Source of the DNA: Celeribacter neptunius
Lineage (GTDB): Bacteria > Pseudomonadota > Alphaproteobacteria > Rhodobacterales > Rhodobacteraceae
DNA: 64,000 nt
Direction: 5' to 3'
Assembly (NCBI RefSeq): GCF_900113955.1
Contig: NZ_FORH01000006.1
Location: 186,001-250,000, forward strand
The notes under the pieces were generated by a model. It was not told where the DNA came from and did no database searches. It worked only from the letters and a program-made list of their open reading frames with translations. Numbering within the stretch: the first letter of the stretch is position 1; each line of letters starts with the position of its first letter. A program made the position numbers and the translations under genes. Positions 8,162 through 41,731 of the stretch are shown here, piece by piece.

Positions 8162-8309
8162 CTGCCTGTGGGGTGGCGCCAAGACGCATGAGGTCTGCGC
8201 TTTATCCTGACCAAATCCGTGAAAGCTCAATCTCTTGCACGGGGATGACAATGCGCCAGCCCGCCGGGACGGGCAGGCGCAGGCGCGGCGGCTTCGCCTC
8301 GTCCCGCGC
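8162..8309 (-). repeat. Dispersed hairpin repeat, copy C
   Basis: Read on the minus strand. Hairpin 1 (8283-8309) has a GCGCGG/CCGCGC outer stem, a five-base bulge GACGA and a small GGC-GAA-GCC inner stem. A 3-base spacer leads to hairpin 2 (8254-8279), whose 26 bases are identical to those of copy B at 39011-39036. Box 2 is at 8197-8219 and box 3 at 8162-8178. Spacing between parts matches the other three copies within one or two bases. It lies downstream of accA in the same orientation as accA. Confidence 0.8.
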
Positions 8310-8366
8310 CCAAAAGGTCAATGTCTGCTCCGTCCCGCAAAGCCGCCGCTCGAACGGGGAATAAAA

Positions 8367-8389
8367 AAGGCCGGGGAGAACCCGGCCTT
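8367..8389 (-). terminator. Rho-independent terminator of accA
   Basis: Stem AAGGCCGGG/CCCGGCCTT with a five-base loop. On the minus strand it runs into TTTTTT, as expected just downstream of the accA stop at 8418. On the plus strand the T-run starts several bases away, so it may also stop plus-strand reads weakly. Confidence 0.85.
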
Positions 8390-8417
8390 GACGTCTTTTT
8401 TTGAAAGCTTGGCGCGC

Positions 8418-9380
8418 TTAGGCCGCCAGACCTTTCGAACCCATTTCCAGGAATTTCTTGCGGCGGTCCTTGAGGATCGCATCGGGCTTTTTCTTCATCA
8501 GCGGCGTCAGGAGCGCTTCGATCGCCTTGCCGACCGAGGCAATCGCCGCCTCGCGGTCACGCTGGGCGCCGCCCAGCGGTTCGGGGATCACCTGATCCAC
8601 GACGCCGAGCTTTTGCAGATCCTGCGCGGTGAGCCGCAGCGCTTCGGCGGCTTCGCGCATCTTCTCGGCATCCTTCCACAGGATCGAGGCACAGCCCTCC
8701 GGCGTGATCACCGAATAGACCGAATGCTCGAGCATGGCGACCTTGTTGGCGGAGGCAAAGGCCACCGCGCCGCCGGAGCCGCCCTCGCCGATGATGATCG
8801 AGATCAGCGGCACTTTCAAAGACAGGCATTTCTCGGTTGAGCGCGCGATGGCCTCGGACTGACCGCGCTCTTCCGCGCCCTTGCCGGGATAGGCACCGGG
8901 CGTGTCGACGAGGGTGATCACCGGCAGGCCGAATTTATCCGCCAGTTCCATCAGGCGGATCGCCTTGCGATAGCCCTCGGGCCGGGCCATGCCGAAATTG
9001 CGCTCGATCCGCGATGTGGTGTCATGGCCCTTTTCCTGACCGATCACCACCACGGGTTGATCGTTGAACCGCGCCAGCCCGCCCATCACGGCGTGATCAT
9101 CGGCAAAATTGCGGTCGCCGGCGAGCGGGGTGTATTCGGTGAACAACGCCTCGATGTAATCCTTGCAATGCGGACGTTCCGGGTGACGCGCCACCTGACA
9201 TTTGCGCCAGGCCGAGAGACCCTTGTACAGGTCCTTGAGCATGTCATCCGCCTTCTTGTCCAAGGCGGCGGCTTCTTTTTCGACATCCATCTCTTCGTTG
9301 GCGCGGGCCAGAGCGCGCAGCTCCTCGGCTTTGCCTTCGATCTCCGCGAGCGGTTTTTCGAATTCGAGATAATGAGTCAT
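8418..9380 (-). CDS. accA: Acetyl-CoA carboxylase carboxyltransferase subunit alpha
   Basis: Alpha subunit of the carboxyltransferase that makes malonyl-CoA for fatty acid synthesis, 320 residues, the standard length. The N-terminal helical region ([17 protein letters not shown]) is typical. The crotonase-like core carries [28 protein letters not shown] and IGEGGSGGA. These are the oxyanion-hole and biotin/CoA-binding segments of AccA. The chosen ATG ([10 protein letters not shown]) matches the family start; the frame extends 20 codons upstream without support. The gene stands alone and ends at a strong terminator. Confidence 0.97.
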
Positions 9381-9511
9381 ACGGGGGGCCTCCGAACGGG
9401 TTTCGATCCCGTATATGGCGATTTTTGGGTCTGGGTGCAACTCAGCAAGATTTGTGATCTGCTGAAGCGGTATCTCTGCGGTCGAGGACTTGTTGAAAGG
9501 ACACGAGGTAA

Positions 9512-10351
9512 ATGGTGCGGCACTCTTATGAAGATCGGCTCTTGCGGGTGCTCGATTACGTCTATGCCCATCTCGATGGCGATCTCTCGCTCGACACGCT
9601 GGCGGAAGTCGCAGCGCTGTCGCGGTTTCATTTCCACCGGGTGTTTTCCGGGATGACCGGTGAAACGGTCGCGGGGTTTATCCGGCGGGTGCGCTTGTCC
9701 AAGGCCTCGCATCTTCTGCTGCGCAGCGAGGACGAAATCGAACGCATCGCTCTGCAATGCGGCTACCCCAATCCGCGCAGTTTTACCCGTGCCTTTCAAG
9801 ATGCCTTTGGACTGACGCCGACCGCCTTTCGGGCGCGTGGCGTTGAGATGCCGCCTCTGCGGCTCAATGAAAGAGGAGATTACGAAATGTATGAGATCAC
9901 GGTTGAAGACCGGGCGCCCGCGGCTTTTGCAGGTGTGGCGCATAAGGGAGATTACATGGAGATCGGCCAGGCCTTCGAGGTGGCTGCAAAAACCGCTTTG
10001 TCGCGGGGGATGGGGCCGGTGCTCGGGGCGATGGTGGGCGTGTATTTTTCCAACCCTGGCGAGGTGCCGGTCGAGGAGATGCGCAGTATGGCTGGATTTG
10101 TCCTGACGGGTGAGATGGATCTTGCGCCGCCGCTCGAACCTTTTTCACTCGCCGGTGGGCGCTATGCCGTGTTGCGCCATATCGGCCCCTATACCGGGTT
10201 GCGACAGGCCTATGATTATCTCTACGGCAAATGGTTGCCCGAAAGCGGCGAGGAGCCGCGCGACGGGCCGCCGTTCGAGATCTACCTGAATTCGCCGATG
10301 GACACCGCGCCGGAGGATCTGGTGACACTGATCCATGCGCCCATCGCATGA
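9512..10351 (+). CDS. AraC-family regulator with GyrI-like effector domain
   Basis: A 279-residue regulator. The AraC/XylS DNA-binding module is N-terminal: a first helix-turn-helix near [19 protein letters not shown] (residues 25-45) and a second near [20 protein letters not shown] (75-97). A short linker leads to a GyrI-like/SOUL-type ligand domain (about 125-279, [20 protein letters not shown] and [20 protein letters not shown]). The Rob/SoxS-like order with a C-terminal GyrI domain usually binds small amphipathic drugs or metabolites. It is divergent from accA, and no obvious target gene adjoins it. Confidence 0.9.
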
Positions 10352-10372
10352 GGCCTTGCGCCTGACAGGAAA

Positions 10373-10400
10373 GCGCCCCGGAGATTGCTCCCCGGGGCGC
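10373..10400 (-). terminator. Terminator hairpin downstream of mcl1
   Basis: Nine-base stem GCGCCCCGG/CCGGGGCGC around a ten-base loop. Read on the minus strand it is followed by TTTCCT. It lies 46 bp beyond the mcl1 stop, and between convergent genes it may serve both. The U-tract is short, so confidence is moderate. Confidence 0.6.
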
Positions 10401-10445
10401 GGTCACCTCAACGGTCAGGTCCTCCTCCCGGCCGGAGGGAAAGGC

Positions 10446-11405
10446 TTAGCTGTTGGCGATCAACTCGGACTGAGCGACGATCACCTCGGCCTGTTTGATC
10501 GAGGCGATATCGACCAGACGGCCTTTGTAGACCGTCGCGCCCTCGCCATTGGCCTTGGCCTGCTCCATCGCCGCGAGAATCTCGCGCGCCTCAGAGACGG
10601 CCTCCTCGGAGGGTGTGAACACTTCATTGGCCAGGGCGATCTGTTTCGGGTGGATCGCCCATTTGCCGACCATGCCGAGCGTTGCGGAGCGGCGCGCCTG
10701 TGCCCGGTAGCCCTCGTCATCGGAGAAATCGCCAAACGGCCCGTCGACCGGCAGCACCCCATGGGTGCGGCAAGCGGCGACGATGGCGGCCTGAGCCCAG
10801 TGCCACGGGTCTGAGTAATGCCGGGTGTCACCGTGCAGCATGTAATAGTTTTCCTGCGTGCCGCCGATACCGGTGGTCTGCATGCCCATCGAGGCGGCGA
10901 AATCCGCCGCCCCAAGGCTCATGGCGACGAGCCGCGGAGAGCTGGCTGCGATCTCCTCGACATGAGCGATGCCGGCGGCGGATTCGATGATGACTTCGAA
11001 ATTGATCTTCTTGGTGCGGCCCTTGGCGCGCTCGATGGCGGTGACCAGCGCATCCACCGCATAGATATCTTCGGCACAGCCCACTTTCGGGATCATGATC
11101 TGGTCGAGCCGCTCACCGGCCTGTTCCAGAAGATCGACGACGTCGCGATACCAGTAGGGCGTGTCGAGCGAGTTGATCCGCACCGCGAGGGTCTTTTTGC
11201 CCCAATCAATCGTGTTGATCGCCTCGATGATATTGGCGCGGGCCACGTCCTTGTCCGACGGCGCCACCGAGTCTTCGAGATCGAGATTGATCACATCCGC
11301 GTCCGAAGCCGCCATTTTCGGGAACAGCTTGGTGTTGGAGCCGGGGCCGAACAGTTGGCAACGGTTCGGGCGATCCACGGGGGTGGGCTGAAGACGGAAG
11401 GACAT
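10446..11405 (-). CDS. mcl1: L-malyl-CoA / beta-methylmalyl-CoA lyase
   Basis: HpcH/HpaI-family CoA-ester lyase, 319 residues, very close in sequence to Mcl1 of Rhodobacter. In that family it cleaves malyl-CoA to acetyl-CoA and glyoxylate and beta-methylmalyl-CoA to propionyl-CoA and glyoxylate, in the ethylmalonyl-CoA and propionate pathways. Visible motifs are VINLDLEDSVAP (Mg-binding acidic patch), FEVIIESAAGI (metal Glu), GAADFAASMGMQTTG and GKWAIHPKQI. The start MSFRLQP is the family start; the frame runs on 24 codons upstream. It is divergent from dgcN across 281 bp. Confidence 0.95.
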   Translation of the reverse strand: MSFRLQPTPVDRPNRCQLFGPGSNTKLFPKMAASDADVINLDLEDSVAPSDKDVARANIIEAINTIDWGKKTLAVRINSLDTPYWYRDVVDLLEQAGERLDQIMIPKVGCAEDIYAVDALVTAIERAKGRTKKINFEVIIESAAGIAHVEEIAASSPRLVAMSLGAADFAASMGMQTTGIGGTQENYYMLHGDTRHYSDPWHWAQAAIVAACRTHGVLPVDGPFGDFSDDEGYRAQARRSATLGMVGKWAIHPKQIALANEVFTPSEEAVSEAREILAAMEQAKANGEGATVYKGRLVDIASIKQAEVIVAQSELIANS

Positions 11406-11448
11406 GGTGGCTCCTGTCGGCAATGATGTTTCGAAATTGTCGCCAGCA

Positions 11449-11477
11449 TTGTTATTATCTTGCTTTGCGTGGTGCAA
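11449..11477 (-). promoter_or_regulatory. Candidate mcl1 promoter
   Basis: On the minus strand TTGCAC (11472-11477) and TAACAA (11449-11454) are separated by 17 bases and point at mcl1, 44 bp from its start. The -35 hexamer lies inside a block (11469-11501) that resembles the mscL upstream region. Confidence 0.4.
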
Positions 11478-11686
11478 GCCACATTTTGCGTCTGCGGCAT
11501 ATCCCCAAAAAACCTCTCAAATAAGTTTTCAAACTGCTCAAAACGTAATCATTTCAATATATGTCCCAGTTTTGTGGATATATTCGGGATATTCTCCCAA
11601 TCCGTCAGCTTTCCTGACGCAATTTGCGAAGCACCTTGCGGCGAATCTCGGTCATGATTTTTCAAACGCAACCGGAGAGCTGCACC

Positions 11687-12706
11687 ATGATCGAAACACC
11701 ATATCTTCTTTTCCTCGGAGACGCCCCTGACCAACTGGCCGCGAAAGTGGCGCAGGGGATCAAGGACTGGCGCCCGGAATTCGCGCTGGGTCAATATCGC
11801 ATGGACGGCTGCAAGGCCGACATGAAATTGCCGGACATGGATCTGAAAGCCGCCAAGGCTGCGGGTGCCAAGACGCTGGTGATCGGCGTTGCCAACCGCG
11901 GTGGTGTGATCAGCCCGGCCTGGAAAAAGGTTCTGGTCGCGGCGCTGGAAGAAGGTTTCGACATCGCGTCGGGCCTGCACAACCTGTTGCGCGACGAGGA
12001 AGATCTCGCCGCCGTCGCCAAGGCTTGCGGCCGGGCGCTGCATGACGTGCGCGTGCCCGAGGTGAAATACCCGATCGCCAATGGCGTGAAACGCAGCGGC
12101 AAGCGCTGCCTCGCCGTCGGCACCGATTGTTCGGTCGGCAAGATGTACACCGCTCTGGCGATGGACAAGGAAATGCGCGAGCGCGGGTTGAAATCCACCT
12201 TCCGCGCCACCGGTCAGACCGGCATCCTGATCACCGGCGACGGTGTGCCCTTGGATGCGGTGGTGGCCGATTTCATGGCCGGTTCGATCGAATGGCTGAC
12301 GCCGGACAATGATGAAGATCACTGGGACCTGATCGAAGGTCAGGGCAGCCTGTTCCACGTCTCCTACTCGGGCGTGACCATGGCGCTGGTGCATGGCGGT
12401 CAGCCGGATGCGCTGATCCTCTGCCACGAGCCGACCCGCGCGCATATGCGGGGTCTGCCGGGCTATGACCTGCCGACGCTCGAGGCGCTGCGCGATACCG
12501 CGCTCACCCTGGCACGCGTCGCCAACCCGGCGTGTGAGGTCGTGGGCATCTCGGTCAACACCCAGCACCTGAGCGAGGAAGAGGCGATTGCCTATCTCGC
12601 CAAGGTCGAGGGGGAAATGGGTTTGCCCGCGATCGATCCCTTCCGTCAGGGCGCCGGCCGTCTGGTGGATGCGCTCGAGGGAAAGACATCTGAGCTTGCG
12701 GCGTAA
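11687..12706 (+). CDS. dgcN: DUF1611 protein, D-glutamate N-acetyltransferase-like DgcN
   Basis: A 339-residue DUF1611 protein. The N-terminal Rossmann-like half (to about 135) is followed by a P-loop-like half with AVGTDCSVGKMYTAL (about 143-157), then ATGQTGILITGDGVP and EGQGSLFHV. DUF1611 proteins paired with a DgcA-type epimerase have been described as D-Glu N-acetyltransferases in D-glutamate catabolism. The next gene is exactly that epimerase, which supports the call. The ATG at 11687 has a GGAG site; the frame extends 21 codons upstream without one. The P-loop suggests nucleotide or CoA binding. The reaction itself is taken from family knowledge. Confidence 0.85.
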   Translation: MIETPYLLFLGDAPDQLAAKVAQGIKDWRPEFALGQYRMDGCKADMKLPDMDLKAAKAAGAKTLVIGVANRGGVISPAWKKVLVAALEEGFDIASGLHNLLRDEEDLAAVAKACGRALHDVRVPEVKYPIANGVKRSGKRCLAVGTDCSVGKMYTALAMDKEMRERGLKSTFRATGQTGILITGDGVPLDAVVADFMAGSIEWLTPDNDEDHWDLIEGQGSLFHVSYSGVTMALVHGGQPDALILCHEPTRAHMRGLPGYDLPTLEALRDTALTLARVANPACEVVGISVNTQHLSEEEAIAYLAKVEGEMGLPAIDPFRQGAGRLVDALEGKTSELAA

Positions 12707-12749
12707 GGCGTAAGCTCAGAAACTCATCCCAAATCATATCGGAGGTCCC

Positions 12750-13727
12750 ATGAAACTGGACGTGACGGCAGAGGCGTTTCGCCTCGCCGAGGTCTTTACC
12801 ATTTCCCGTGGCTCGCGCACCGAGGCGAAAGTGCTCACAGTGCGTGCCACGGACAAAACTGCGGCAGGCGAATTGACGGGGTGGGGCGAATGTGTGCCCT
12901 ATGCCCGCTATGGCGAGAGCCTGGAGAGCGTGACGGCGGAGATCGAGGCCCTGCCGGCAGACATCACCCGGGCAACGCTGCAGGAGATGATGGAGCCCGG
13001 CGCGGCCCGCAATGCGGTGGATTGCGCGCTCTGGGATCTCGAGGCCTCGAAAACGGGCAAACGGGTTTGGGAAATTCTGGAGCTGCCGGCGCCGGTGCCG
13101 ATGATCACCGCGTTCACCCTGTCTCTGGCCAGCCCGGAAGAGATGCAGGCCTCGGCGGCGAAACATGCGCATCGACCGCTTCTCAAGATCAAGCTCGGCA
13201 CGCCCGACGATATGGCCCGGCTCGAAGCCGTGCGCCGCGGCGCGCCGAAATCGAAAATCATCGTCGATGCGAACGAGGGTTGGACGGCCGAGGTCTACGC
13301 GGATCTCGCGCCGCACCTGCTGCGGCTTGGCGTCGAGCTGGTGGAACAACCCTTGCCTGCGGGACAGGATGACATGTTGGCGGAGATTGAGAGACCCCTT
13401 CCGGTCTGCGCCGATGAGTCCTGTCACGACCGGAAGAGCCTCCCCGATCTCAAGGGCAAATACGATGTGATCAACATCAAGCTCGACAAGACCGGGGGGC
13501 TCACCGAGGCGCTGGAACTGCGCAAAGCCGCGCGGGCCGAGGGGTATGGCATCATGGTCGGCTGCATGGTCGGCACCTCTCTGGCGATGGCGCCGGCGGT
13601 GATCGTGGCCCAGGGGGCGCGTGTCGTGGATCTTGACGGGCCTTTGCTTTTGGCCGAAGACCGTCCGGAACCTTTGCACTATGACGCCGAGGGTGTTCAC
13701 CCGCCCAAACGCGCACTCTGGGGCTGA
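12750..13727 (+). CDS. dgcA: DgcA: N-acetyl-D-glutamate racemase / dipeptide epimerase (enolase superfamily)
   Basis: A 325-residue enolase-superfamily enzyme of the muconate-lactonizing/dipeptide-epimerase subgroup. The KxK catalytic lysines are K146 and K148 (LLKIKLG). Metal ligands are D173 (VDANEG), E199 (VEQPLP) and D222 (CADES). The opposite lysine lies in NIKLDKTGG (242-250). Such enzymes epimerize L-Ala-D/L-Glu; next to DgcN they act on N-acetyl-D-Glu. AGGAGG-type site GGAGG precedes the ATG. It lies 43 bp after dgcN and 35 bp before the aminotransferase, so the three form one operon. Confidence 0.87.
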   Translation: MKLDVTAEAFRLAEVFTISRGSRTEAKVLTVRATDKTAAGELTGWGECVPYARYGESLESVTAEIEALPADITRATLQEMMEPGAARNAVDCALWDLEASKTGKRVWEILELPAPVPMITAFTLSLASPEEMQASAAKHAHRPLLKIKLGTPDDMARLEAVRRGAPKSKIIVDANEGWTAEVYADLAPHLLRLGVELVEQPLPAGQDDMLAEIERPLPVCADESCHDRKSLPDLKGKYDVINIKLDKTGGLTEALELRKAARAEGYGIMVGCMVGTSLAMAPAVIVAQGARVVDLDGPLLLAEDRPEPLHYDAEGVHPPKRALWG

Positions 13728-13762
13728 CCCCGTATCCAACCCGCTCATCTAAGGAGATCATG

Positions 13763-14623
13763 ATGACCCGCACCGTCTATGTGAACGGCGACTACCTGCC
13801 GGAAACCGAGGCCAAAGTATCCATTTTCGACCGCGGGTTCCTGATGGCGGACGCCGTTTACGAGGTGACCTCGGTTCTCGGCGGCAAGCTTCTGGACTTT
13901 CAGGGCCACGTGGCGCGCCTTCAGCGCTCGCTCAGCGAGCTGCAAATGGTCTCGCCCGTCACCATGGACGAGCTTCTCGAGATCCATCACCAGCTGATTG
14001 AGAAAAACGATCTCGACGAGGGCGGCATCTACCTGCAGATCACCCGCGGTGCCGGGGCGGATCGCGATTTCCTCTGGCCGGACCCCGAAGAGGTCCAGGG
14101 CGGTATCGTGCTCTTCACCTTCGCCAAAAAGATCACCGCCAACAAATCGATCGATGAGGGCATCAAGGTGATCTCCATCGAGGATCTGCGCTGGGGCCGT
14201 CGCGACATCAAGACCACGCAGCTCCTGTACCCGTCCTTTGCCAAGATGCAGGCGAAGAAAGCCGGGGCAACCGACGCCTGGTTTGTCGAAGATGGCTATG
14301 TGACCGAGGGCTATGCCAACAACGTCTATATCGTCAAAGACGGCGTGATCATCACCCGCCAGCTCTCCAATGACATCCTGCACGGCATCACCCGTGCCGC
14401 GATCCTGAAATTTGCGGCGGAAGCGCAGATGAAAGTCGAGGAACGCCCCTTCACCATCGAAGAGGCGCAAGCCGCCGACGAGGCGTTTGCGACCTCGGCC
14501 ACCGGGTTCTCGCAACCGGTCGTGGAGATCGATGGCGTGACCGTCGGCACCGGCAAACCGGGCCCGGTCTCGAAACGCCTGCGCGAGATCTACATCGAAG
14601 AAATGCCGAAAACCGCGCTTTGA
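13763..14623 (+). CDS. dat: D-amino-acid transaminase (PLP fold type IV)
   Basis: A 286-residue class IV aminotransferase closest to D-alanine aminotransferase. The PLP lysine is K150 in RRDIKTTQLL. DRGFLMADAVYE at the N-terminus, the TRGAGADRDF region and the EGYANNVYIVKDG strand are family hallmarks. It would move the amino group between D-Ala or D-Glu and 2-oxoacids. Two ATGs follow each other at 13760 and 13763; AAGGAG at 13751 is better spaced for the second. Position after dgcN-dgcA supports a D-amino-acid degradation role. Branched-chain aminotransferase or aminodeoxychorismate lyase activity is less likely. Confidence 0.88.
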   Translation: MTRTVYVNGDYLPETEAKVSIFDRGFLMADAVYEVTSVLGGKLLDFQGHVARLQRSLSELQMVSPVTMDELLEIHHQLIEKNDLDEGGIYLQITRGAGADRDFLWPDPEEVQGGIVLFTFAKKITANKSIDEGIKVISIEDLRWGRRDIKTTQLLYPSFAKMQAKKAGATDAWFVEDGYVTEGYANNVYIVKDGVIITRQLSNDILHGITRAAILKFAAEAQMKVEERPFTIEEAQAADEAFATSATGFSQPVVEIDGVTVGTGKPGPVSKRLREIYIEEMPKTAL

Positions 14624-14655
14624 TCGTCAGGGATATCTGTTGGACAGACCTAAAA

Positions 14656-14677
14656 AAGCCCGCCATATGGCGGGCTT
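14656..14677. terminator. Bidirectional terminator between dat and RTX gene
   Basis: Stem AAGCCCGCC/GGCGGGCTT with an ATAT loop. T-runs flank it on both strands (TTTT on plus, TTTTTT on minus), fitting the convergent genes on either side. Confidence 0.9.
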
Positions 14678-14713
14678 TTCCAATCGTGCTACACGATATG
14701 TCCTACGCGATGC

Positions 14714-17275: not shown

Positions 17276-17280
17276 CTCGA

Positions 17281-17625: not shown

Positions 17626-17627
17626 GA

Positions 17628-22153: not shown

Positions 22154-22157
22154 ATTT

Positions 22158-34346: not shown

Positions 34347-34405
34347 ACGGGGCCGCGAGAACTCTCTTTCTCATCCTCCGAGATCGCTTTTGAACGTCGC
34401 ATTTG

Positions 34406-34558
34406 GCGCGGAACAAGGCCGATAGGCCGCCGCGCATCGCTGACGCGTCCCCATGCGGCTGCGATTTGGCGAGGTTGGCGTCCCGTGTCGAAGTTTTCCG
34501 GAGGTGGCCGGGATAAAGTGAGAGGGTCTGCGGTCGGGATCGCAACCGCACGCGTCAG
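34406..34558 (+). repeat. Dispersed hairpin repeat, copy A
   Basis: Hairpin 1 (34406-34435): GCGCGG/CCGCGC outer stem, bulge AACAA, inner GGCC-GATA-GGCC. Hairpin 2 (about 34436-34465) pairs ATCGC with GCGAT and keeps the same T-T mismatch as copies B and C. Box 2 is at 34499-34521 and box 3 at 34541-34558. The element starts 59 bp after the helicase stop in the same orientation. Its hairpin 2 and box sequences are the most diverged of the four copies. Confidence 0.78.
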
Positions 34559-34626
34559 AGATGCGCGGCTTCGCTCTGAACTCGAAACGTTCGAATAGTC
34601 TCGATCAAAAGCGAGTTCCCAAAACA

Positions 34627-34658
34627 AACCCCCGGAGGCGTGAAAGCTTCCGGGGGTT
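34627..34658 (-). terminator. Terminator of rpsU
   Basis: Thirteen-pair stem with one G-T wobble (AACCCCCGGAGGC with GCTTCCGGGGGTT), six-base loop. On the minus strand TTTGTTTT follows. Confidence 0.9.
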
Positions 34659-34709
34659 GTATTCTTTTATGTCCTCGAGAGGACCGTTCGTACGTCGGAT
34701 CAAAAGATC

Positions 34710-34916: not shown

Positions 34917-35026
34917 GTGGTGTCACCACCTTCCTAAGTTAGATTTGCAAAAATTGCAGGAGGCCGCCGTATAGCAAAGTCATCACGGCTTGTCTACTAT
35001 GGGGGCTGACTCATGAGGAGAAAGCC

Positions 35027-35740
35027 ATGCCAATGACCGCCTATCCCGATCCGACCCTTGAAAAACTGCTCGATGCGGCGCTGATCCATGTGGTTTTCGA
35101 CGGTTGGGGGCCGGAAACCTTCCGTGCTGCCGTGGCCGATTCGGAGGTTTCGGAGGCGCTGGCCAAGGTCGCGGCGCCGCGCGGTTCGGTCGATCTGGCC
35201 GCCGCCTATCACAAACGCGGCGATCGCGAGATGGTCAAGGCGCTCGAAGAGGCGGATCTCTCGGATATGCGGTTTCGCGACCGGATCGCCCATGCGGTCT
35301 GGCTGCGGCTTCAGGCGGTGGATCGCGAGGCGGTGCGCCGTGGCATGTCGCTGTTTTCCTTGCCGCATCTGGCGCCAGAGGGGACGCGGCTCCTGTGGGA
35401 GACCGCGGATGCGATCTGGTCGGCGCTGGGCGACAGCTCCGAAGATGTGAACTGGTACACCAAACGCGCTACCTTGTCGGGGGTCTTTGCCTCGACCGTG
35501 CTGTTCTGGCTGGGCGATGACAGCGACGGGTTCACCGACACCAAGGCCTTCATCGACCGGCGGATCGACAATGTCATGCAGTTTGAGAAGGCCAAGGCCA
35601 GCGTGCGCGAGAACAAGGCGCTCTCGGCGATGTTCGCGCTGCCGAATGCGATGCTCTCGATGGTGAAAGCGCCCGCAGGCACCCGTCGTGGGGATGTCCC
35701 CGGGACGCAGACCGCCTCTCAGGGAGAGAATGCAGAATGA
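35027..35740 (+). CDS. coq9: COQ9 family protein (ubiquinone biosynthesis)
   Basis: A 237-residue COQ9-type protein, related to TetR-fold lipid-binding proteins. In eukaryotes COQ9 presents quinone intermediates to COQ7. Residues 10-75 form the TetR-like helical part (LLDAALIHVVFDGWGPETFRAAV). The COQ9 signature is WETADAIWSALGDSSEDVNWYTKRATLSGVFASTVLFWL (read in part). The family has the same role inferred in Alphaproteobacteria. The stop overlaps the ATG of the quinone oxidoreductase gene, so the two are coupled. Confidence 0.9.
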   Translation: MPMTAYPDPTLEKLLDAALIHVVFDGWGPETFRAAVADSEVSEALAKVAAPRGSVDLAAAYHKRGDREMVKALEEADLSDMRFRDRIAHAVWLRLQAVDREAVRRGMSLFSLPHLAPEGTRLLWETADAIWSALGDSSEDVNWYTKRATLSGVFASTVLFWLGDDSDGFTDTKAFIDRRIDNVMQFEKAKASVRENKALSAMFALPNAMLSMVKAPAGTRRGDVPGTQTASQGENAE

Positions 35741-36723
35741 GCCAGCCTGACATGATGCGCGCCGTCGAGATTTCCGCCCCCGGTGCCCCCGAGGTCTTGC
35801 AGCTTTGCGAGCGTCGCGTGCCGAGGCCCGGTGCCGATGAAATCGTGATCCGGGTGGCCTATGCCGGGGTGAACCGCCCCGATGCGTTGCAGCGTGCCGG
35901 GCTTTACAATCCGCCGCCGGGCGCCTCCGATCTGCCGGGGCTCGAAGCCGCGGGCGAGGTGGTGGCGATTGGCGCGGCTGTGTCCGATTGGAAAATCGGC
36001 GATCAGGTCTGTGCTTTGCTGCCGGGCGGCGGTTACGCCGAATATGTCGCCACACCCGCCGCTCATGCCCTGCCGGTGCCCGAGGGCCTGACGCTGAAAC
36101 AGGCGGCCTGCCTGCCCGAGACCTTCTTCACCGTCTGGTCCAACGTGTTCATGCGCGGCGGGCTTCAGGCGGGCGAACGGTTCATGGTCCATGGTGGCTC
36201 GTCAGGGATCGGCACCACCGCGATCCAGCTGGCCCGGGCCTTTGGCGCGCGGGTTTTCGCGACCGCCGGGTCTGAGGAGAAATGTCAGGCCTGTGCGGAT
36301 CTGGGGGCCGAGCGCGCGATCAATTACCGCGAGGAGGATTTCGTCGAACTCGCCAAACAAGAGGGCGGGATGAACCTCATCCTCGACATGGTCGGTGGGG
36401 ACTATATCCCGCGCAACATCAAGGCGCTGGCGATGGAAGGGCGTCTGGTCAACATTGCCTTCCTGCAAGGCTCGAAGGCGGAGGTGAATTTCGCGCAGGT
36501 GATGCTGCGGCGGTTGACGCTCACGGGCTCGACGCTGCGGCCGCAGTCGGATGCTGCCAAGGCAAAAATCGCCGACGAGCTGCGCAGCAAGGTCTGGCCG
36601 CTTTTGGAGGCGGGCACCGTCGCCCCGGTGATGCATTCCGAATTCGATCTGGCAGACGCGGCACAAGCGCATGCGCTGATGGAGACCAACGCTCATATCG
36701 GCAAGATCGTGTTGAAGATCTGA
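35737..36723 (+). CDS. NAD(P)H-quinone oxidoreductase, zeta-crystallin/PIG3 type
   Basis: A 328-residue medium-chain dehydrogenase/reductase without zinc ligands. YAGVNRPDALQRAGLY and GLEAAGEVVAIG belong to the GroES-like domain. The Rossmann part has the HGGSSGIGTTAIQLARAFGA nucleotide loop and INYREEDF, as in PIG3. It probably reduces quinones with NADPH. The ATGA overlap with coq9 suggests a shared role in quinone metabolism. Confidence 0.92.
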   Translation: MSQPDMMRAVEISAPGAPEVLQLCERRVPRPGADEIVIRVAYAGVNRPDALQRAGLYNPPPGASDLPGLEAAGEVVAIGAAVSDWKIGDQVCALLPGGGYAEYVATPAAHALPVPEGLTLKQAACLPETFFTVWSNVFMRGGLQAGERFMVHGGSSGIGTTAIQLARAFGARVFATAGSEEKCQACADLGAERAINYREEDFVELAKQEGGMNLILDMVGGDYIPRNIKALAMEGRLVNIAFLQGSKAEVNFAQVMLRRLTLTGSTLRPQSDAAKAKIADELRSKVWPLLEAGTVAPVMHSEFDLADAAQAHALMETNAHIGKIVLKI

Positions 36724-36752
36724 AGCGTGAGATCAAAGATTGACGGAGGCAG

Positions 36753-37394
36753 TTACTCAATCGCCTCCAGAAGCGCATCGTCCAGCGTACAGTCCCGGAT
36801 CGTGTCGGCGCCGCATTTGCGTGGCTCGAGATCCGGGGTGAGGCAGATGCGGACTTCCTGAATGCGGTAGGATTTGCAGGTCACGGTGATCTCATTGGCG
36901 TCGAGCCCGTCATTCTCTTTCATGAAGGCTTCCTCGATCAGCGCGGCCGGGAGTTTCACATCCTTGGTGAGTTTGCGGAACACCTCGGGGCGGGTGAATT
37001 TCTCATAGGCCGCCCGCGCCGTGTCGAGATAGGCCTGCGCCGGCAATCCGGAACAGCGCCCGTGTTTCTTCCACTGATACCAAGCGGCGCCATCGGTGCC
37101 CATGATGTCTTGCATCGCGGCGGTCTGGCGTCGAGAGGGATCGCGCTCTGACGTATTGCAGTACGACGGCCAGCCGTTTTCATATTGCGGCCAGAGCCCG
37201 TGCAACACCCAGCCATAGTCGCCGTCACATTGCGGCGATCCCCGGTCTTCGCCCTCCAGAGCACACCATGTGGGGGACCATGAGAGCGAGAGCACATAAT
37301 AGTCGAAATCTCCGGCGCGCTCGCCCTCGGCAAAGGCCGGGGGGGCCAGAGACAGGGCGGCGGTCAGACAGGCACTCACGATCCGTTTACGCAT
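36753..37394 (-). CDS. Ribonuclease T2 family protein, secreted
   Basis: A 213-residue RNase T2-fold enzyme with a Sec signal peptide (MRKRIVSACLTAALSLAPPAFA). Both catalytic segments are present: CAS I WVLHGLWPQ (H65) and CAS II WYQWKKHGRC (H111). Eight cysteines support disulfides in the periplasm or outside. It would cut RNA to nucleotides via 2',3'-cyclic phosphates. A much longer frame runs through from upstream but antisense to trcR; MRKRIV at 37394 is the natural start. It probably serves nutrient scavenging. Confidence 0.92.
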   Translation of the reverse strand: MRKRIVSACLTAALSLAPPAFAEGERAGDFDYYVLSLSWSPTWCALEGEDRGSPQCDGDYGWVLHGLWPQYENGWPSYCNTSERDPSRRQTAAMQDIMGTDGAAWYQWKKHGRCSGLPAQAYLDTARAAYEKFTRPEVFRKLTKDVKLPAALIEEAFMKENDGLDANEITVTCKSYRIQEVRICLTPDLEPRKCGADTIRDCTLDDALLEAIE

Positions 37395-37535
37395 TTTCTC
37401 TTTCCTCTGATTGCGATCCGCACTATACAGCCGCCAAGTTCCCCGACAACGAGAACCGTCCCCAGCCGGGGAAAGCCCCTTGAGGCGACGGGAAAGTTGT
37501 ATCCGGGGAGAGCCGCATTTTAAGGAGTGTGACCC

Positions 37536-38273
37536 ATGGCAAAACCGATTATGGCAAAGGCCACCGCTGTCTGGCTGGTCGACAATACCACGCTGAGCTT
37601 CAAGCAGATCGCCGATTTCTGCAGCCTGCACGAGCTGGAAGTTCAGGGCATCGCCGATGGGGATGTCGCGGGCGGCGTGCGGGGCTTTGACCCGGTGGCC
37701 AACAACCAGCTGACCGCAGAAGAAATCAAGACCGCGGAAGAGAACCCGCTGCACAAGCTGAAGCTCAAATTCAACGCTGCTGCCCAGGGCGAAGAGAAAC
37801 GCCGTGGCCCGCGCTACACGCCGCTCTCCAAGCGTCAGGACCGTCCGAACTCGATCCTCTGGCTGGTGAAATTCCACCCGGAGCTGACCGATGGTCAGAT
37901 CGCCAAGCTGGTGGGCACGACCAAGCCGACGATCCAGTCGATCCGCGAACGCACCCATTGGAACATCGCCAATATGCAGCCGATCGATCCGGTGGCGCTG
38001 GGCCTGTGTAAGCAAAGCGAACTCGACGCCGCCGTGCAAAAGGCCGCGAAGAACCGCGATGCCGGCATGACCGATGACGAGCGTCGCAAGCTGCTCTCGA
38101 CCGAGGATTCTCTGGCCGCTGACGCAGAGCCGAAAATCCCCACCGCCATCGCCGGCCTCGAGGCCTTCTCGCTCTCGGGCGACGATGAAGAAAAAGAAGA
38201 TACCTCGGTGCCGGATGCCGACAGTTTCTTCAACCTGCCCGATGGGGCGCATGACGACGAAGAAGACGAGTAA
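37536..38273 (+). CDS. trcR: DUF1013 / TrcR cell-cycle transcriptional regulator
   Basis: A 245-residue protein of the alphaproteobacteria-specific DUF1013 (TrcR) family. MAKATAVWLVDNTTLSFKQIADFC and the later VKFHPELTDGQIAKLVGTTKPTIQSIRERTHWNI (read in part) form two helix-turn-helix-like blocks (about residues 5-50 and 108-150). The C-terminus is acidic (DDEEKEDTSVPDADSF and DDEEDE). AAGGAGTG precedes the ATG. It is believed to act in cell-cycle transcription; targets are not visible here. Confidence 0.92.
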   Translation: MAKPIMAKATAVWLVDNTTLSFKQIADFCSLHELEVQGIADGDVAGGVRGFDPVANNQLTAEEIKTAEENPLHKLKLKFNAAAQGEEKRRGPRYTPLSKRQDRPNSILWLVKFHPELTDGQIAKLVGTTKPTIQSIRERTHWNIANMQPIDPVALGLCKQSELDAAVQKAAKNRDAGMTDDERRKLLSTEDSLAADAEPKIPTAIAGLEAFSLSGDDEEKEDTSVPDADSFFNLPDGAHDDEEDE

Positions 38274-38297
38274 TTGCGTCAGGGCATTTGAATGCAT

Positions 38298-38330
38298 AAA
38301 CCCCGGGAGTTGTCTCCCGGGGTTTTGTTT
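38298..38330. terminator. Bidirectional terminator between trcR and recR
   Basis: Twelve-base stem AAACCCCGGGAG/CTCCCGGGGTTT with a TTGT loop, followed by TGTTTTT on the plus strand and AT-rich sequence on the minus strand. It separates two convergent genes. Confidence 0.9.
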
Positions 38331-38348
38331 TTCATGCCTGAGATCGTG

Positions 38349-38948
38349 CTAGAATGCGTTGCGTTTGCGGGCATTGAGCGCCGCCGAGATCGTGCCGTCG
38401 TCGAGATAGTCGAGCTCACCGCCGATCGGCACGCCCTGGGCCAGCGAAGACACCTCGCAGCGTCCGGACAGCTCGTCGGCGATGTAATGCGCCGTGGTCT
38501 GACCGTCGACCGTGGCGTTGAGTGCGAGGATCACCTCATGCACCTGCTCGTCGCCGACGCGTTGCACCAGCGCCGGGATACGCAGATCCTCGGGCCCCAC
38601 GGCATCCAAGGCCGAGAGCGTGCCGCCCAGCACGTGATAGCGGCCCTTGAACACGCCGGCGCGCTCCATCGCCCAGAGATCGGCGACATCCTCGACGACG
38701 CAGATCTCGCCATTGGCGCGGCGCTCGTCGGTGCAGAAATCACAGAGATCGCCGGTGCCGATATTGCCGCAGCGCAGGCACTCGCGCGCGCTTTCGGCCA
38801 CCTGCTGCATCGCTTGCGCCAGCGGGTGCATCAACCGGCCACGCTTCTTGATCAGATGCAGCACGGCACGGCGCGCCGAACGGGGCCCGAGCCCCGGCAG
38901 ACGCGCCATCAGATCGATGAGATCCTCGATATCCTGCTGACTGCTCAT
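38349..38948 (-). CDS. recR: Recombination mediator protein RecR
   Basis: A 199-residue RecR of the RecFOR gap-repair pathway. Helix-hairpin-helix [17 protein letters not shown] (about 15-32), zinc finger [16 protein letters not shown] (59-74), Toprim domain with [15 protein letters not shown] (about 82-96), and a C-terminal Walker-B-like region. GGAGG lies before the chosen ATG; an upstream ATG four codons earlier is less likely. It belongs to the dnaX-ybaB-recR minus-strand block, though a repeat element separates it from ybaB. Confidence 0.97.
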
Positions 38949-38978
38949 GCGCGCCTCCACATTGTTCCTGTGCCCGAT

Positions 38979-39130
38979 GCGCGGAACAAGGCCTCAGGCC
39001 GCCGCGCATTCGCCTGCCCGTCCCGGCGGGCTGGCGATTGGGGGAGGTTTTCGCGACGTGCCGATGTTCCCCGGATGTGACGGCTATAAAGCGCGACTGG
39101 TCCCCCCGGGGATCGCCATCCCACGGGCAG
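38979..39130 (+). repeat. Dispersed hairpin repeat, copy B
   Basis: Hairpin 1 (38979-39007): outer GCGCGG/CCGCGC, bulge AACAA, inner GGCC-TCA-GGCC. Spacer ATT. Hairpin 2 (39011-39036) pairs CGCCTGCCCG with CGGGCTGGCG, one T-T mismatch, and all 26 bases match copy C. Box 2 is at 39072-39094 and box 3 at 39114-39130. It fills the ybaB-recR gap in the orientation opposite to both genes, 31 bp upstream of the recR start. Confidence 0.8.
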
Positions 39131-39182
39131 TCCAATGCGCGTCTCGCCGCCCAATGCAAGGGACATGCCGCTCATCCCCGTT

Positions 39183-39527
39183 TCAGAACGGCATCTTGAA
39201 ATCGGCGGGAAGACCCAGACCCTCGGTCAGGGCTTTCATCTCCTCTTCGGATTTGGCGGCCGCTTTCGCCTGGGCATCCTTGATCGCGGCGAGGATCAGA
39301 TCCTCGACCACTTCCTTTTCATCCGGGTGGAAAATCGACGGGTCGATGTCGAGCGCGGTGAGCTTGCCCTTCGCCGTCGCCGTGGCTTTCACCAGACCCG
39401 CGCCGCTTTCGCCGACAACCGTCATTTCATCGAGCTTCTCCTGCAGATCGGCCATATCCTTCTGCATTTTCTGAGCTTTTTTCATCATCCCGGCCATATC
39501 GCCGAGGCCGCCAAGACCTTTGAGCAT
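39183..39527 (-). CDS. ybaB: YbaB/EbfC family nucleoid-associated protein
   Basis: A 114-residue YbaB/EbfC protein, a dimeric DNA-binding protein associated with the nucleoid. KKAQKMQKDMADLQEKLDEM is the first helix, and ATAKGKLTALDIDPSIF with VEDLILAAIKDAQAKA form the conserved core. It lies 30 bp after dnaX on the same strand, the common dnaX-ybaB-recR order. Confidence 0.95.
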   Translation of the reverse strand: MLKGLGGLGDMAGMMKKAQKMQKDMADLQEKLDEMTVVGESGAGLVKATATAKGKLTALDIDPSIFHPDEKEVVEDLILAAIKDAQAKAAAKSEEEMKALTEGLGLPADFKMPF

Positions 39528-39557
39528 CTTATTCTCCTGCGTAAACTGTCAGTGGGA

Positions 39558-41360
39558 TCAGTCCTCTTCGAAAGGATCCCATTCATCTTCGACCTCTTGC
39601 AGCGCGTCTTGCGCGGCTTCCGAGGCAATCTTTTCCGGGGTGCGGATCGTCGCGATCTCGGCGCCGGGGAAAAGCTCGAACACTTTCGCCACCATCGGGT
39701 GTTGCATCGCCTCTTGGCGGAGCGCCAGCTCCTCGGCATCGCGAATCTCACGAATTGTGCGCACATCCTCAGGGGCTTCGGCGATGGTCACGCCCCAGCG
39801 ATGGCCGGTGAAGGCAAAGAGCCGGCTTTGCAGCCGGGCGGCAAGATCGGCAGGGGCATCGCCCCAGGGCTGGAACTCGATGAAACCGGGGCGGTAATTG
39901 GCCAAACGGACGTGGTTTTCCACATCGATCAGCAGTTTCGCGTCGCGGTGATCCCGGATCAGGTTCACGATCGTCTCGAAACTGGCATAGCGGGCGAGCG
40001 CCACATCGGGCGCCTGGGCCGGGGCGGTCGCTGCGCCAGAGCCGACCGCATGGCTACCGGCGTGCATCACCGGGGCGTGGGCCATCTGACCGCCGCCCAT
40101 GGAACCGGACCCCTGCGCATTGACGGAACCACCGCCCGCCGGTGCACCGCCACCCGTCAGGCCGCCTGCGGGGCCAGACGGCGGGCGCGGCGGCGGGTTC
40201 TGTTCATTGAGCTTGCGCACCAGATCTTCCGGCAGCGGCAGATCGGCCACGTGCGTCAACCGGATGATCGCCATTTCCGAGGCCATCATCGCGTTGGGCG
40301 CATTGGCCACCTCTTCGATCGCTTTCAGAAGCATTTGCCACATGCGCGACAGCACCCGCATCGGCAGTTTCTCGGCCATGGTCAGCCCGCGCGTGCGCTC
40401 GTCCGGGCCGATGGTCGGATCATCGGCGGCGGCGGGGGTGATCTTGATCACCGAGACCCAATGGGTGATTTCCGCCAGATCGCGCAACACCGCCAGAGGA
40501 TCGGCACCATCGGCATATTGCCCGCCGAGCTCCTCGAGTGCGCCGGCGGCATCGCCGAGCATGATCATGTCGAACAGGTCCAGGACCCGGCCGCGGTCGG
40601 CGAGACCCAGCATGGCGCGGACCTGATCCACCGTGGTCTCGCCGGCGCCATGGGAAATCGCCTGATCCAGCAGGGATTCCGCATCGCGGGCGGAGCCTTC
40701 GGCGGCGCGGGTGATCAGTGCCAGCGCCTCATCGGTGATCTGCCCGCCTTCGGCATCGGCGATCTTGCGCAACAGCGCCAGCATCACCTCCGGTTCGATC
40801 CGCCGCAGATCGAAGCGCTGACAGCGCGACAGCACCGTCACCGGCACCTTGCGGATCTCGGTGGTGGCAAAGATAAATTTCACATGCGCCGGCGGTTCCT
40901 CGAGCGTTTTCAGGAGCGCGTTGAACGCACTCGTGGAGAGCATGTGGACTTCGTCGATGATGTAGATCTTGTAGCGCGCCGAGGCGGCGCGGTAATGCAC
41001 CGAGTCGATGATCTCGCGAATATCGCCGACACCGGTGCGCGAGGCGGCGTCCATTTCCATCACATCGACATGGCGGCCTTCGGAGATTGCCACGCAATGT
41101 TCGCATTTGCCGCAAGGATCGGTGGTCGGCCCGCCGTTGCCATCCGGACCGATGCAGTTCATCCCCTTGGCGATGATCCGCGCCGTGGTGGTTTTGCCGG
41201 TGCCGCGAATGCCGGTCATGATGAAGGCCTGGGCGATGCGGTCGGCAGCAAAGGCATTCTTGAGCGTCCGCACCATGGCGTCCTGACCGACGAGATCGGC
41301 AAAGGTCTCCGGGCGGTATTTGCGCGCCAGAACCTTGTAGCCGGAATTGGTGTCGGTCAT
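39558..41360 (-). CDS. dnaX: DNA polymerase III subunit gamma/tau
   Basis: Clamp-loader ATPase, 600 residues. Walker A is GIRGTGKTTTARI (about 49-61). The zinc module is CIGPDGNGGPTTDPC (in part) plus CGKCEHC. Walker B is YIIDEVHMLS, and the arginine finger sits in VLSRCQRFDLR. Domain III ends near residue 370. A Pro/Gly-rich linker (PPPRPPSGPAGG) and a tau-like C-terminal domain follow. No slippery poly-A frameshift site is obvious, so a separate gamma form is not indicated. Confidence 0.96.
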   Translation of the reverse strand: MTDTNSGYKVLARKYRPETFADLVGQDAMVRTLKNAFAADRIAQAFIMTGIRGTGKTTTARIIAKGMNCIGPDGNGGPTTDPCGKCEHCVAISEGRHVDVMEMDAASRTGVGDIREIIDSVHYRAASARYKIYIIDEVHMLSTSAFNALLKTLEEPPAHVKFIFATTEIRKVPVTVLSRCQRFDLRRIEPEVMLALLRKIADAEGGQITDEALALITRAAEGSARDAESLLDQAISHGAGETTVDQVRAMLGLADRGRVLDLFDMIMLGDAAGALEELGGQYADGADPLAVLRDLAEITHWVSVIKITPAAADDPTIGPDERTRGLTMAEKLPMRVLSRMWQMLLKAIEEVANAPNAMMASEMAIIRLTHVADLPLPEDLVRKLNEQNPPPRPPSGPAGGLTGGGAPAGGGSVNAQGSGSMGGGQMAHAPVMHAGSHAVGSGAATAPAQAPDVALARYASFETIVNLIRDHRDAKLLIDVENHVRLANYRPGFIEFQPWGDAPADLAARLQSRLFAFTGHRWGVTIAEAPEDVRTIREIRDAEELALRQEAMQHPMVAKVFELFPGAEIATIRTPEKIASEAAQDALQEVEDEWDPFEED

Positions 41361-41378
41361 GCGATGTGCCTCCTTAAA

Positions 41379-41420
41379 GCGTTTTGCGAAAACCCTGACA
41401 TGCAGATTTTCGCAAAACGC
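41379..41420. promoter_or_regulatory. Perfect 14-bp inverted repeat upstream of dnaX
   Basis: GCGTTTTGCGAAAA (41379-41392) is mirrored exactly by TTTTCGCAAAACGC (41407-41420) around a 14-base centre. It ends 18 bp before the dnaX start codon. It could be an operator for dnaX or a leader stem. The pattern differs from a terminator because the loop is long and no T-run follows in either direction. Confidence 0.5.
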
Positions 41421-41573
41421 CGAGCGACGTTGTTATGTGGCGCGCCTGTCGCAATCCCCCTCTGTCTCGGGGTGTCGCGAAAGGCCTTGATTGCACCATA
41501 AGGTAAGGGCGGGAGGAGCCCCCCGCAACCTCAATTGATGCTCCAATCGATGCCATTGTGGCATAGAGCGCGA

Positions 41574-41731
41574 ATGCCCGATCGGGGGGGCTGGCGATCT
41601 GACTTTTGATTGAAGCGTTTGTCGCGGTCAAATCCGAGAAAACTTTGAGCGGTGTGTTTGTTTCAGACAAATCGCCAGACCGTGGGCCGGTCTGGCGTTC
41701 GCGCGGCGGCGCTGCGCGCCTTGTTCCGCGC
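41574..41731 (-). repeat. Dispersed hairpin repeat, copy D
   Basis: Minus orientation. Hairpin 1 (41701-41731) has outer GCGCGG/CCGCGC, bulge AACAA and an inner stem GGCGC-GCA-GCGCC. Spacer GAA. Hairpin 2 (41673-41697) is fully paired, CGCCAGACCG with CGGTCTGGCG, so the T-T mismatch of B and C is here an A-T pair. Box 2 is at 41615-41636 (one base shorter) and box 3 begins at 41596. Hairpin 1 starts eight bases after the rsgA stop, same orientation. Confidence 0.78.

What the first reader, a model, noticed from the sequence alone, without database searches (positions are those of the whole stretch)
8162..41731. Four-copy, about 150-bp intergenic repeat with fixed architecture
Copies lie at 8162-8309 (minus), 34406-34558 (plus), 38979-39130 (plus) and 41574-41731 (minus). 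All share the same order: hairpin 1, a 2-3 base spacer, hairpin 2, then 34-36 bases to box 2 (consensus near CGGATTTGACCGGGATAAAG), then 18-19 bases to box 3 (near CGCCANCCCAC then GGGCAG). Copies B and C share 26 identical bases in hairpin 2. The spacing is too regular for chance. It behaves like a mobile or replicating intergenic element, or a repeated RNA or protein-binding module. I do not recognise it as a named family. Four copies in 64 kb imply many in the genome.
Basis: seen in the sequence. Interest (0 to 1): 0.8.

Follow-up and report, generated by a model that had tools for sequence, protein, structure and literature searches.

The report
Mobile hairpin repeat of Rhodobacteraceae
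The four look-alike stretches are copies of a small DNA repeat with co-evolving hairpins that has spread between genes, mostly just after a gene's end, in many genera of one bacterial family, and that I did not find described.

Summary
All four copies match one covariance model (E 8e-28 to 1e-17); 95 copies were read in the host genome. In a sample of its family, 159 of 394 genomes (393 genera) have it at E<=1e-6, with only seven candidates scored each; 0 of 24 genomes of other alphaproteobacterial families have it at E<=1e-5. Rfam has no match.

"Box 3" is no separate motif: it is the reverse complement of hairpin 2, and the tail repeats an arm of hairpin 1. Strands covary in two mutually exclusive pairings (0 of 500 shuffles).

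93 of 95 copies are intergenic, 52 between convergent and 2 between divergent genes, orientation random to genes. Near-identical copies lie at unrelated sites; copy C's site is empty in 9 of 9 congeners fetched. Wobble pairs are rare (2% against 10% in SRP RNA), hinting at DNA. RAYT, TnpB-like and reverse-transcriptase families gave no hit in this genome.

Best reading: a trans-mobilised, MITE-like DNA element that folds as competing hairpins. Mobilising enzyme and any RNA role are unknown.

The parts
8160..8310 (-). Copy A, core (hairpin 1 to box 3)
   Evidence: cmsearch E 8.2e-28; 97% identical to the copy in L021 at another locus
8311..8343 (-). Copy A, outer arm of type Y (GCTTTGCGGGACGGAGCAGACATTG...)
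   Evidence: sequence; the terminal 15-mer lies next to a copy or a low-scoring match at 21 of 25 places
8114..8159 (-). Copy A, 3' continuation of the core and outer arm of type X (ends in GGGCTC in element orientation)
   Evidence: sequence; X and Y arms lie at opposite ends
34405..34559 (+). Copy B, core; hairpin 2 arm TGACGCGT pairs with box 3 ACGCGTCA
   Evidence: cmsearch E 2.1e-18; sequence
38978..39132 (+). Copy C, core; 234 bp between the flanking called genes where 9 of 9 fetched same-genus genomes have 3-16 bp
   Evidence: cmsearch E 2.3e-22; orthologous sites
38978..39008 (+). Copy C, hairpin 1 with the A-rich bulge AACAA
   Evidence: alignment A5 columns 1-35
39010..39037 (+). Copy C, hairpin 2
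   Evidence: alignment A5 columns 37-64
39072..39091 (+). Copy C, box 2, central conserved motif (CGGATGTGACGGCTATAAAG)
   Evidence: alignments A3 and A5
39111..39132 (+). Copy C, box 3, reverse complement of hairpin 2
   Evidence: pair counts of the long-range helices
41576..41732 (-). Copy D, core; at the orthologous site one congener (G003) has a shorter derivative
   Evidence: cmsearch E 1.4e-17

Best explanation
A non-autonomous, MITE-like DNA element. Its core (about 165 bp) has no reading frame common to its copies and consists of hairpin 1 with an A-rich bulge, hairpin 2, a central motif near GGATTTGGC-GATAAAG, and an inverted copy of hairpin 2 followed by a repeat of the first arm of hairpin 1. 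The arms can pair in two exclusive ways: local hairpins 1 and 2, or one long imperfect palindrome. I infer that the folded single strand or cruciform, not a transcript, is what an enzyme acting in trans recognises, that the element copies itself into sites downstream of genes, and that selection removes insertions upstream of genes. In this genome the core lies between outer arms (type X at one end, type Y at the other) and faces either way; in a Salipiger plasmid and in genome G169 other outer arms are seen. This suggests insertion into, or recombination within, other palindromes. Shown: spread in the family, copy number, covariation, location, dispersal of near-identical copies, empty orthologous sites. 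Inferred: the DNA form, the trans enzyme, the insertion into palindromes.
For: Copies: 117 matches at E<=1 (150 of 4012 candidates scored); 95 at E<=0.001 in the first 88 sources. Pairs of copies 95-99% identical at loci with unrelated flanks; in several pairs similarity stops sharply at GAGCCC on one side and GTCCGC on the other. Copy C site: 3-16 bp in 9 of 9 fetched same-genus genomes (of 19 others in the genus sample) against 234 bp here; copy D site: 57-75 bp in 7 of 9. Context: convergent 52, tandem 41, divergent 2 of 95; gaps >=100 bp without a copy in the same DNA: convergent 7, tandem 70, divergent 55 (Fisher p 1.7e-13 for divergent, 2.4e-17 for convergent). Orientation in tandem contexts 20 sense, 21 antisense. 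Pairing: 92.6% and 91.7% of cells in the two states, covariation above all 500 shuffles and all slides. G-U share 2.1% and 1.8% against 9.7% in SRP RNA of 10 genomes of the genus. Plasmid copies in Salipiger, Pacificitalea and Pseudosulfitobacter, tandem copies, and a strain-level rearrangement at one copy.
Against: No mobilising gene was found. No empty site closer than about 80% DNA identity was seen, so no target-site duplication could be read and the ends rest on paralogues. Two genome-wide patterns for core-free X-Y shells found none, which does not favour insertion of the core into pre-existing shells. The structure is conserved over more genera than a simple MITE needs, so host use is possible. 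Outer arms of the 32 other-genus copies are as a set no more complementary than shuffled ones (mean score 7.53 against 7.21). Covariation of inverted repeats can also arise by template switching (recalled). Three carriers in the tests below do hold some of the candidate mobiliser genes (see membership rows).
Confidence: 0.6

Rival explanations
1. An RNA module of 3' untranslated regions, like ERIC, NEMIS or REP transcripts: the hairpins stabilise or destabilise upstream mRNA or end transcription, and the two exclusive pairings act as a switch.
For: Strong bias to gene 3' ends; strong covariation of two competing states; an unpaired but conserved bulge and central motif. Hairpin 2 of copy D with its ATTTG tail meets a loose terminator pattern (one of 3 such sites in window 38900-41800, shuffle mean 2.9; copy C does not). 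ERIC is reported to act on mRNA stability (PMC2229807, section 5 part 1 read).
Against: Orientation is random to genes (20 and 21), G-U pairs are scarce, and Rfam has no match. No expression data were available.
Confidence: 0.2
2. The covariation is mutational: DNA polymerase template switching between inverted repeats keeps the arms complementary, so the structure has no function beyond being a palindrome-rich mobile sequence.
For: Both-side changes far outnumber one-side changes in the long-range helices (127 cells against 12), and three strands change together, as template correction would give. The mechanism is recalled, from no call.
Against: The architecture, the bulge and the central motif persist across genera, and unpaired columns are conserved, which correction alone does not explain.
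Confidence: 0.1
3. A chromosomal protein-binding site (nucleoid, gyrase or cell-cycle) related to the CcrM-associated intergenic repeats (CIR) of Caulobacter and Brucella, methylated at GANTC in hairpin 1.
For: GANTC lies at the hairpin 1 bulge in 20 of 32 other-genus copies and 11 of 90 own copies, and elsewhere in the core in only 3 of 32 and 1 of 90; shuffled cores hold the motif somewhere in 12 of 32 and 36 of 90. CIR are described as two arms with a linker and an exposed GANTC (PMC2229807, section 5 part 1 read).
Against: 79 of 90 own copies lack GANTC at the bulge, and 9 of 20 same-genus genomes gave no match at E<=1e-5 among the 50 candidates scored in each, so an essential host role is unlikely.
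Confidence: 0.1

Closest known systems
CIR (CcrM-associated intergenic repeats of Caulobacter, Brucella and other alphaproteobacteria)
   Same: Intergenic, alphaproteobacterial, two arms with a linker, GANTC exposed in one arm (PMC2229807)
   Different: CIR are given as about 110 bp against an about 165-bp core here; this element has an inverted copy of hairpin 2 at its 3' end; R1 finds nothing at E<=1e-5 in 24 genomes of other alphaproteobacterial families. The original CIR paper is not held, so sequences were not compared.
ERIC / IRU / RU-1 of enterobacteria
   Same: 127-bp intergenic repeat shared by many members of a bacterial group (PMC2229807)
   Different: No sequence comparison made; two exclusive pairings and exchangeable outer arms are not in the passage I read
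CGTC-tagged REPs of alphaproteobacteria
   Same: Palindromic, downstream of coding regions, between unidirectional and convergent genes, no dedicated transposase known (PMC3733652, abstract and section 6)
   Different: 20-40 bp units with 8-9 bp stems and a terminal CGTC tag; here a 165-bp multi-hairpin unit
Correia / NEMIS of Neisseria
   Same: About 107 and 155 bp forms that differ by an internal stretch; the long form almost exclusively intergenic (PMC2229807)
   Different: The 155-bp form binds IHF; here 0 of 90 copies match the exact IHF consensus

Membership tests
MITE (miniature inverted-repeat transposable element) | Short, non-coding, multi-copy, dispersed | tested here: met
   95 copies read; near-identical copies at unrelated loci; no reading frame open in all copies (best frame 29 of 90 own, 19 of 32 other-genus)
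MITE (miniature inverted-repeat transposable element) | Terminal inverted repeats | tested here: inconclusive
   Arms X and Y lie at opposite ends in 29 of 29 copies clearly typed at both ends; own arms are a little more complementary within a copy than shuffled (8.38 against 7.13) but less than between copies (9.54)
MITE (miniature inverted-repeat transposable element) | Target-site duplication and a parent transposon with the same ends | tested here: inconclusive
   No close empty site available; 4 of 25 places of the terminal 15-mer lie away from copies and I saw no long element with it; one of them (L196) looks like a solitary arm
REP / REPIN mobilised by RAYT | RAYT (Y1_Tnp, PF01797) in the genome | tested here: not met
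   0 matches in G000 and in 8 of the 10 other genomes I took as carriers; matches in carriers G003 and G034 and in G005, G015, G026 of the rest (5 of 27 in all)
TnpB-type (OrfB) associated elements | PF07282 in the genome | tested here: not met
   0 in G000; over the cut-off in 2 of 30 genomes, carrier G030 and G033; sub-cut-off matches in carriers G028, G169, G195 and in G035
Retron or other reverse-transcriptase-borne elements | RVT_1 (PF00078) in the genome | tested here: not met
   0 in G000, G192, G301, G131, G169, G195, G001, G021, G028, G034; present in carriers G003, G006, G007, G019, G029, G030, G022 (14 of 30 in all)
CIR | GANTC conserved in the repeat | tested here: inconclusive
   At the hairpin 1 bulge in 20 of 32 other-genus and 11 of 90 own copies
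CIR | Sequence homology to the CIR consensus | not testable with these tools
   Paper not held, no CIR sequence at hand
Any Rfam family | Covariance-model match at gathering score | tested here: not met
   Only SRP RNA in the window; 7 matches in six copy loci, all below gathering
Correia / NEMIS | IHF site inside the long form | tested here: not met
   0 of 90 copies match WATCAANNNNTTR on either strand (consensus recalled)

The most novel reading that the evidence does not exclude
A class of mobile DNA, old within one bacterial family, that moves as a folded single strand or cruciform: three co-evolving strands switch between local hairpins and one long palindrome, a CcrM-type methylation site at the hairpin bulge ties the switch to replication, and the element lodges inside other palindromes (outer arms), which would explain why its core faces either way within them. 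Neither RAYT, TnpB-type nor reverse-transcriptase genes are needed, so the enzyme would be unknown.
Probability: 0.15. Interest if true: 0.8.

Novelty: new variant of a known kind. Interest (0 to 1): 0.55.

Why it matters
For family-wide intergenic repeats of this general kind the way they spread is largely open. This one has a sharp structural signature, a covariance model that finds it in many genera, both rich and apparently empty genomes within one genus, and a series of similar plasmids in one species (Pseudosulfitobacter pseudonitzschiae), so presence-absence genetics of its movement, and a test for a DNA or RNA role, become practical.

Tried and rejected
An IHF site in the centre was suspected; 0 of 90 copies match the consensus exactly. 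Mobilisation by RAYT, TnpB-type or RT genes was tested and not supported for this genome. A parent transposon sharing the terminal 15-mer was sought at the four places away from copies and not seen. Core-free shells were sought by two exact patterns over the genome: none; in 489 kb of fetched own DNA four X-Y pairs lie within 130 bp, three of them short forms that hold hairpin 1 and one (in L066) that I take for chance. Homologues in 80 dnaX neighbourhoods: none. Phage records: none. A plain terminal-inverted-repeat reading of the outer arms failed: complementarity within a copy is lower than between copies, which led to the X/Y result. The orthologous site of copy D is not empty everywhere: of nine genomes G003 has a shorter derivative (R1 E 1e-6) and G015 a 217-bp gap without an R1 match. 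Fast inversion is not supported: pairs at least 95% identical have the same core-in-shell orientation in 13 of 13.

Rows dropped or capped. R1 was built without L005, L012, L019, L023 and L028. Short derivatives (match under 145 bp) were left out (IHF count); one search also left out L005 and L087. The loci fetched hold further low-scoring matches (20 at E<=1) that are in no count. Of 36 other-genus matches 32 were used; of 29 matches, 28 were used. The 29 other-genus loci are those the tool returned as best matches, not a random draw. One search holds 60 contexts, 6 of which repeat a copy already counted. X/Y types come from my own patterns: of 95 copies 29 are clear at both ends, 12 clear at one end and ambiguous at the other, the rest typed at one end or none. 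Gene calls are from my own simple codon-usage caller, not an annotation. Literature searches listed no paper that I recognised as describing this repeat; open-access library only, and I opened passages or sections of four papers.
Full report
Observation. A covariance model, R1, built from 26 copies of this genome, all four window copies among them, finds them at E 8.2e-28 to 1.4e-17, the next place in the window being E 0.012. Independent of that model, blastn with copy C alone has 40 places at E<=6e-8 in the genome, itself included.

How many and where. In the host genome (4.40 Mb, 18 contigs) R1 gives 117 matches at E<=1, 150 of 4012 candidates being scored. With the loci and 60 further stretches I read 95 copies at E<=0.001. 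In 61 genomes, the host included, 19 have matches at E<=1e-5: 11 of 20 in the genus, 8 of 17 in other genera of the family, 0 of 24 in other families of the class (50 candidates scored per genome). In a family sample 159 of 394 genomes (393 genera), the host included, have a match at E<=1e-6 with 7 candidates scored per genome, so this is a lower bound. Named carriers are plasmids of Pacificitalea, Salipiger and Pseudosulfitobacter, with one Roseinatronobacter record in a tally; most of the 89 Pseudosulfitobacter records match only over hairpins 1 and 2. Phage records gave none. Rfam has no match at gathering score.

Anatomy. In 32 copies from 29 other genera the core runs from hairpin 1 (outer stem, A-rich bulge such as AACAA or AATCAA, inner hairpin) through a short spacer, hairpin 2, a variable stretch and the central motif near CGGATTTGGCNGGGATAAAG to box 3 and a tail such as GATGGCGCGGC. 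Box 3 plus tail is, in most of these copies, the reverse complement of the 3' arm of hairpin 1, the spacer and the 5' arm of hairpin 2; the tail repeats the 5' arm of hairpin 1. I aligned 37 copies (29 from other genera, 8 from this genome) and counted two structures. State I (hairpins 1 and 2, box 3 on itself): 92.6% of 944 cells paired, 16 of 26 pairs with both-side changes. State II (long-range): 91.7% of 992 cells, 17 of 27 pairs with both-side changes. Both exceed all 500 shuffles and all slides on every measure. The structures were drawn from this alignment, which favours them over the slid versions. Some columns separate the states: column 42 pairs in 36 of 37 rows with column 161 (state II) and in 16 of 37 with column 59 (state I). 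Box 3 left also pairs with the 3' arm of hairpin 2 (96.8% of cells).

DNA or RNA. G-U pairs make up 2.1% and 1.8% of standard pairs in the two states, against 9.7% in the SRP RNA of ten genomes of the genus. The control is small and its rows are close relatives, so this is suggestive only. Both-side changes outnumber one-side changes in state II by 127 to 12 cells. This fits complementarity kept at DNA level, by selection or by template switching between inverted repeats (mechanism recalled). On the other side, hairpin 2 of copy D with its ATTTG tail meets a loose terminator pattern, one of three such sites in 2.9 kb where shuffles give 2.9; copy C does not.

Gene context. With my own gene caller, 93 of 95 copies are intergenic; the two overlaps are short derivatives whose match runs on into a gene. 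Contexts are convergent 52, tandem 41, divergent 2; in tandem contexts 20 lie sense and 21 antisense. Gaps of at least 100 bp without a copy in the same DNA are convergent 7, tandem 70, divergent 55. This baseline is unfavourable to convergent gaps, since insertion itself lengthens them; all non-overlapping gene pairs of the window give tandem 32, convergent 11, divergent 11. In other genera 60 contexts, 6 of them repeats of the same copy, give convergent 31, tandem 25, divergent 0, one side missing 4, and no overlap with called genes. In annotated records three tandem copies lie between convergent genes in Pacificitalea, one between convergent genes in Salipiger, and the two Pseudosulfitobacter copies opened lie between tandem genes.

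Mobility. Several pairs of copies are 95-99% identical at loci with unrelated flanks, and in several the similarity stops sharply at GAGCCC on one side and GTCCGC on the other. At copy C, nine of nine fetched same-genus genomes have 3-16 bp between the orthologous genes where this genome has 234 bp. At copy D, seven of nine have 57-75 bp against 379 here; G003 has a shorter derivative and G015 a 217-bp gap. R1 on these nine stretches finds only the G003 derivative (E 1e-6) at E below 0.5. The genomes are about 80% identical in DNA, so no target-site duplication can be read. In Pseudosulfitobacter, strain H46 has a full and a partial R1 match in a stretch where SC33-45 has one match, and the alignment shows partly duplicated hairpin sequence in H46.

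Outer arms. In this genome the core sits between two outer arms. Type X reads GAGCCC...GGACRTT, type Y GCTTTGCGGGAC... In all 29 copies clearly typed at both ends the ends are of opposite type, 16 as X-core-Y and 13 as Y-core-X. With one end enough, 38 face one way and 34 the other, no copy is inconsistent and 23 are untyped. Pairs of copies at least 95% identical agree in 13 of 13; at 90-95% 6 of 19 disagree, and below 80% about half. So the core turns relative to its arms on an evolutionary time scale. Neither core nor shell is oriented by genes. Other arms occur elsewhere: a GGTTYTGGCCTG type in G169 and in locus L233, and GGTGGGCAGATTGCCCACCCTAC in a Salipiger plasmid. A 31-bp hairpin is nested in 16 of 95 own copies by pattern, 11 in one orientation and 5 in the other. 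I read these as palindromes nested in palindromes; core-free X-Y shells were not found, so the direction of nesting is open.

Enzyme. Y1_Tnp has no match in this genome nor in carriers G001, G006, G007, G019, G021, G028, G029 and G030; carriers G003 and G034 have it. PF07282 and RVT_1 have no match in this genome. RVT_1 is also without match in G192, G301, G131, G169 and G195, but carriers G003, G006, G007, G019, G022, G029 and G030 have it; PF07282 is over its cut-off in carrier G030. A past mobiliser, now lost, is not excluded, and DDE transposases were not tested.

Methylation site. GANTC lies at the hairpin 1 bulge in 20 of 32 other-genus copies and 11 of 90 own copies; elsewhere in the core it is found in 3 of 32 and 1 of 90, where shuffled cores hold it somewhere in 12 and 36. 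This recalls the CIR repeats, described in a review as about 110 bp, two arms with a linker, GANTC exposed (PMC2229807, outline and section 5 part 1 read). The CIR paper itself is not held; a paper on alphaproteobacterial RNA motifs cites it among earlier described long repeat elements (PMC1273637, passages only).

Known kinds. It works like a MITE or an ERIC/CIR-type intergenic repeat. By present gene content of this genome it is not a RAYT-dependent REPIN, and it is no Rfam family. CGTC REPs of alphaproteobacteria share location and lack of a known transposase but are 20-40 bp (PMC3733652, abstract, section 6 and passages). A survey of 50 bacterial genomes has a class of mobile/repeat candidates and notes that inconsistent orientation suggests a mobile element (PMC11109978, passages only); the four genus names I searched there (Rhodobacter, Paracoccus, Ruegeria, Roseobacter) do not occur in its main text, and its supplements were not read.

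Verdict. Real, widespread in the family, mobile on an evolutionary scale, structurally conserved, and not described in the sources I searched. A new family of a known general kind with an unusual three-strand architecture; mobiliser and any cellular role unknown.

Noticed in passing
own copies such as L028, L063, L069, L072, L078, L084; also L200, L201, L202, L206, L207: A 31-bp hairpin near GGTCATGCTGAAAGCATGCCTCCGGCATGACC sits inside hairpins of the element in both orientations (16 of 95 copies by pattern; 26 places in the own loci): a smaller nested repeat.
   Followed up: partly
L012, L019, L075, L087, L199, L208: Internal-deletion forms: hairpins 1 and 2 only, or hairpin 1 alone between the outer arms, apparently by loss between near-direct repeats.
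   Followed up: partly
L261 (Pacificitalea manganoxidans pDY25-A) 2290-2850; L241, L242, L244 (G192): Tandem arrays of two or three copies with a period of about 190-230 bp.
   Followed up: partly
L263 against L265 (Pseudosulfitobacter pseudonitzschiae H46 and SC33-45): Sequence at one element differs between strains of one species by partial duplication; many similar plasmids are held for population study.
   Followed up: partly
L196 about 2019 (G000 contig C9:19918): What looks like a solitary Y outer arm without a core match.
   Followed up: no
window 45822-45891: Three copies of a 21-nt repeat near CCCCTGTGGGCGTTCCGC at 24-25 nt spacing, at the 3' end of the gene called at 45868-46635 (-).
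   Followed up: no
window 42953-43049 (-): Bacterial small SRP RNA, used as the RNA control.
   Followed up: yes
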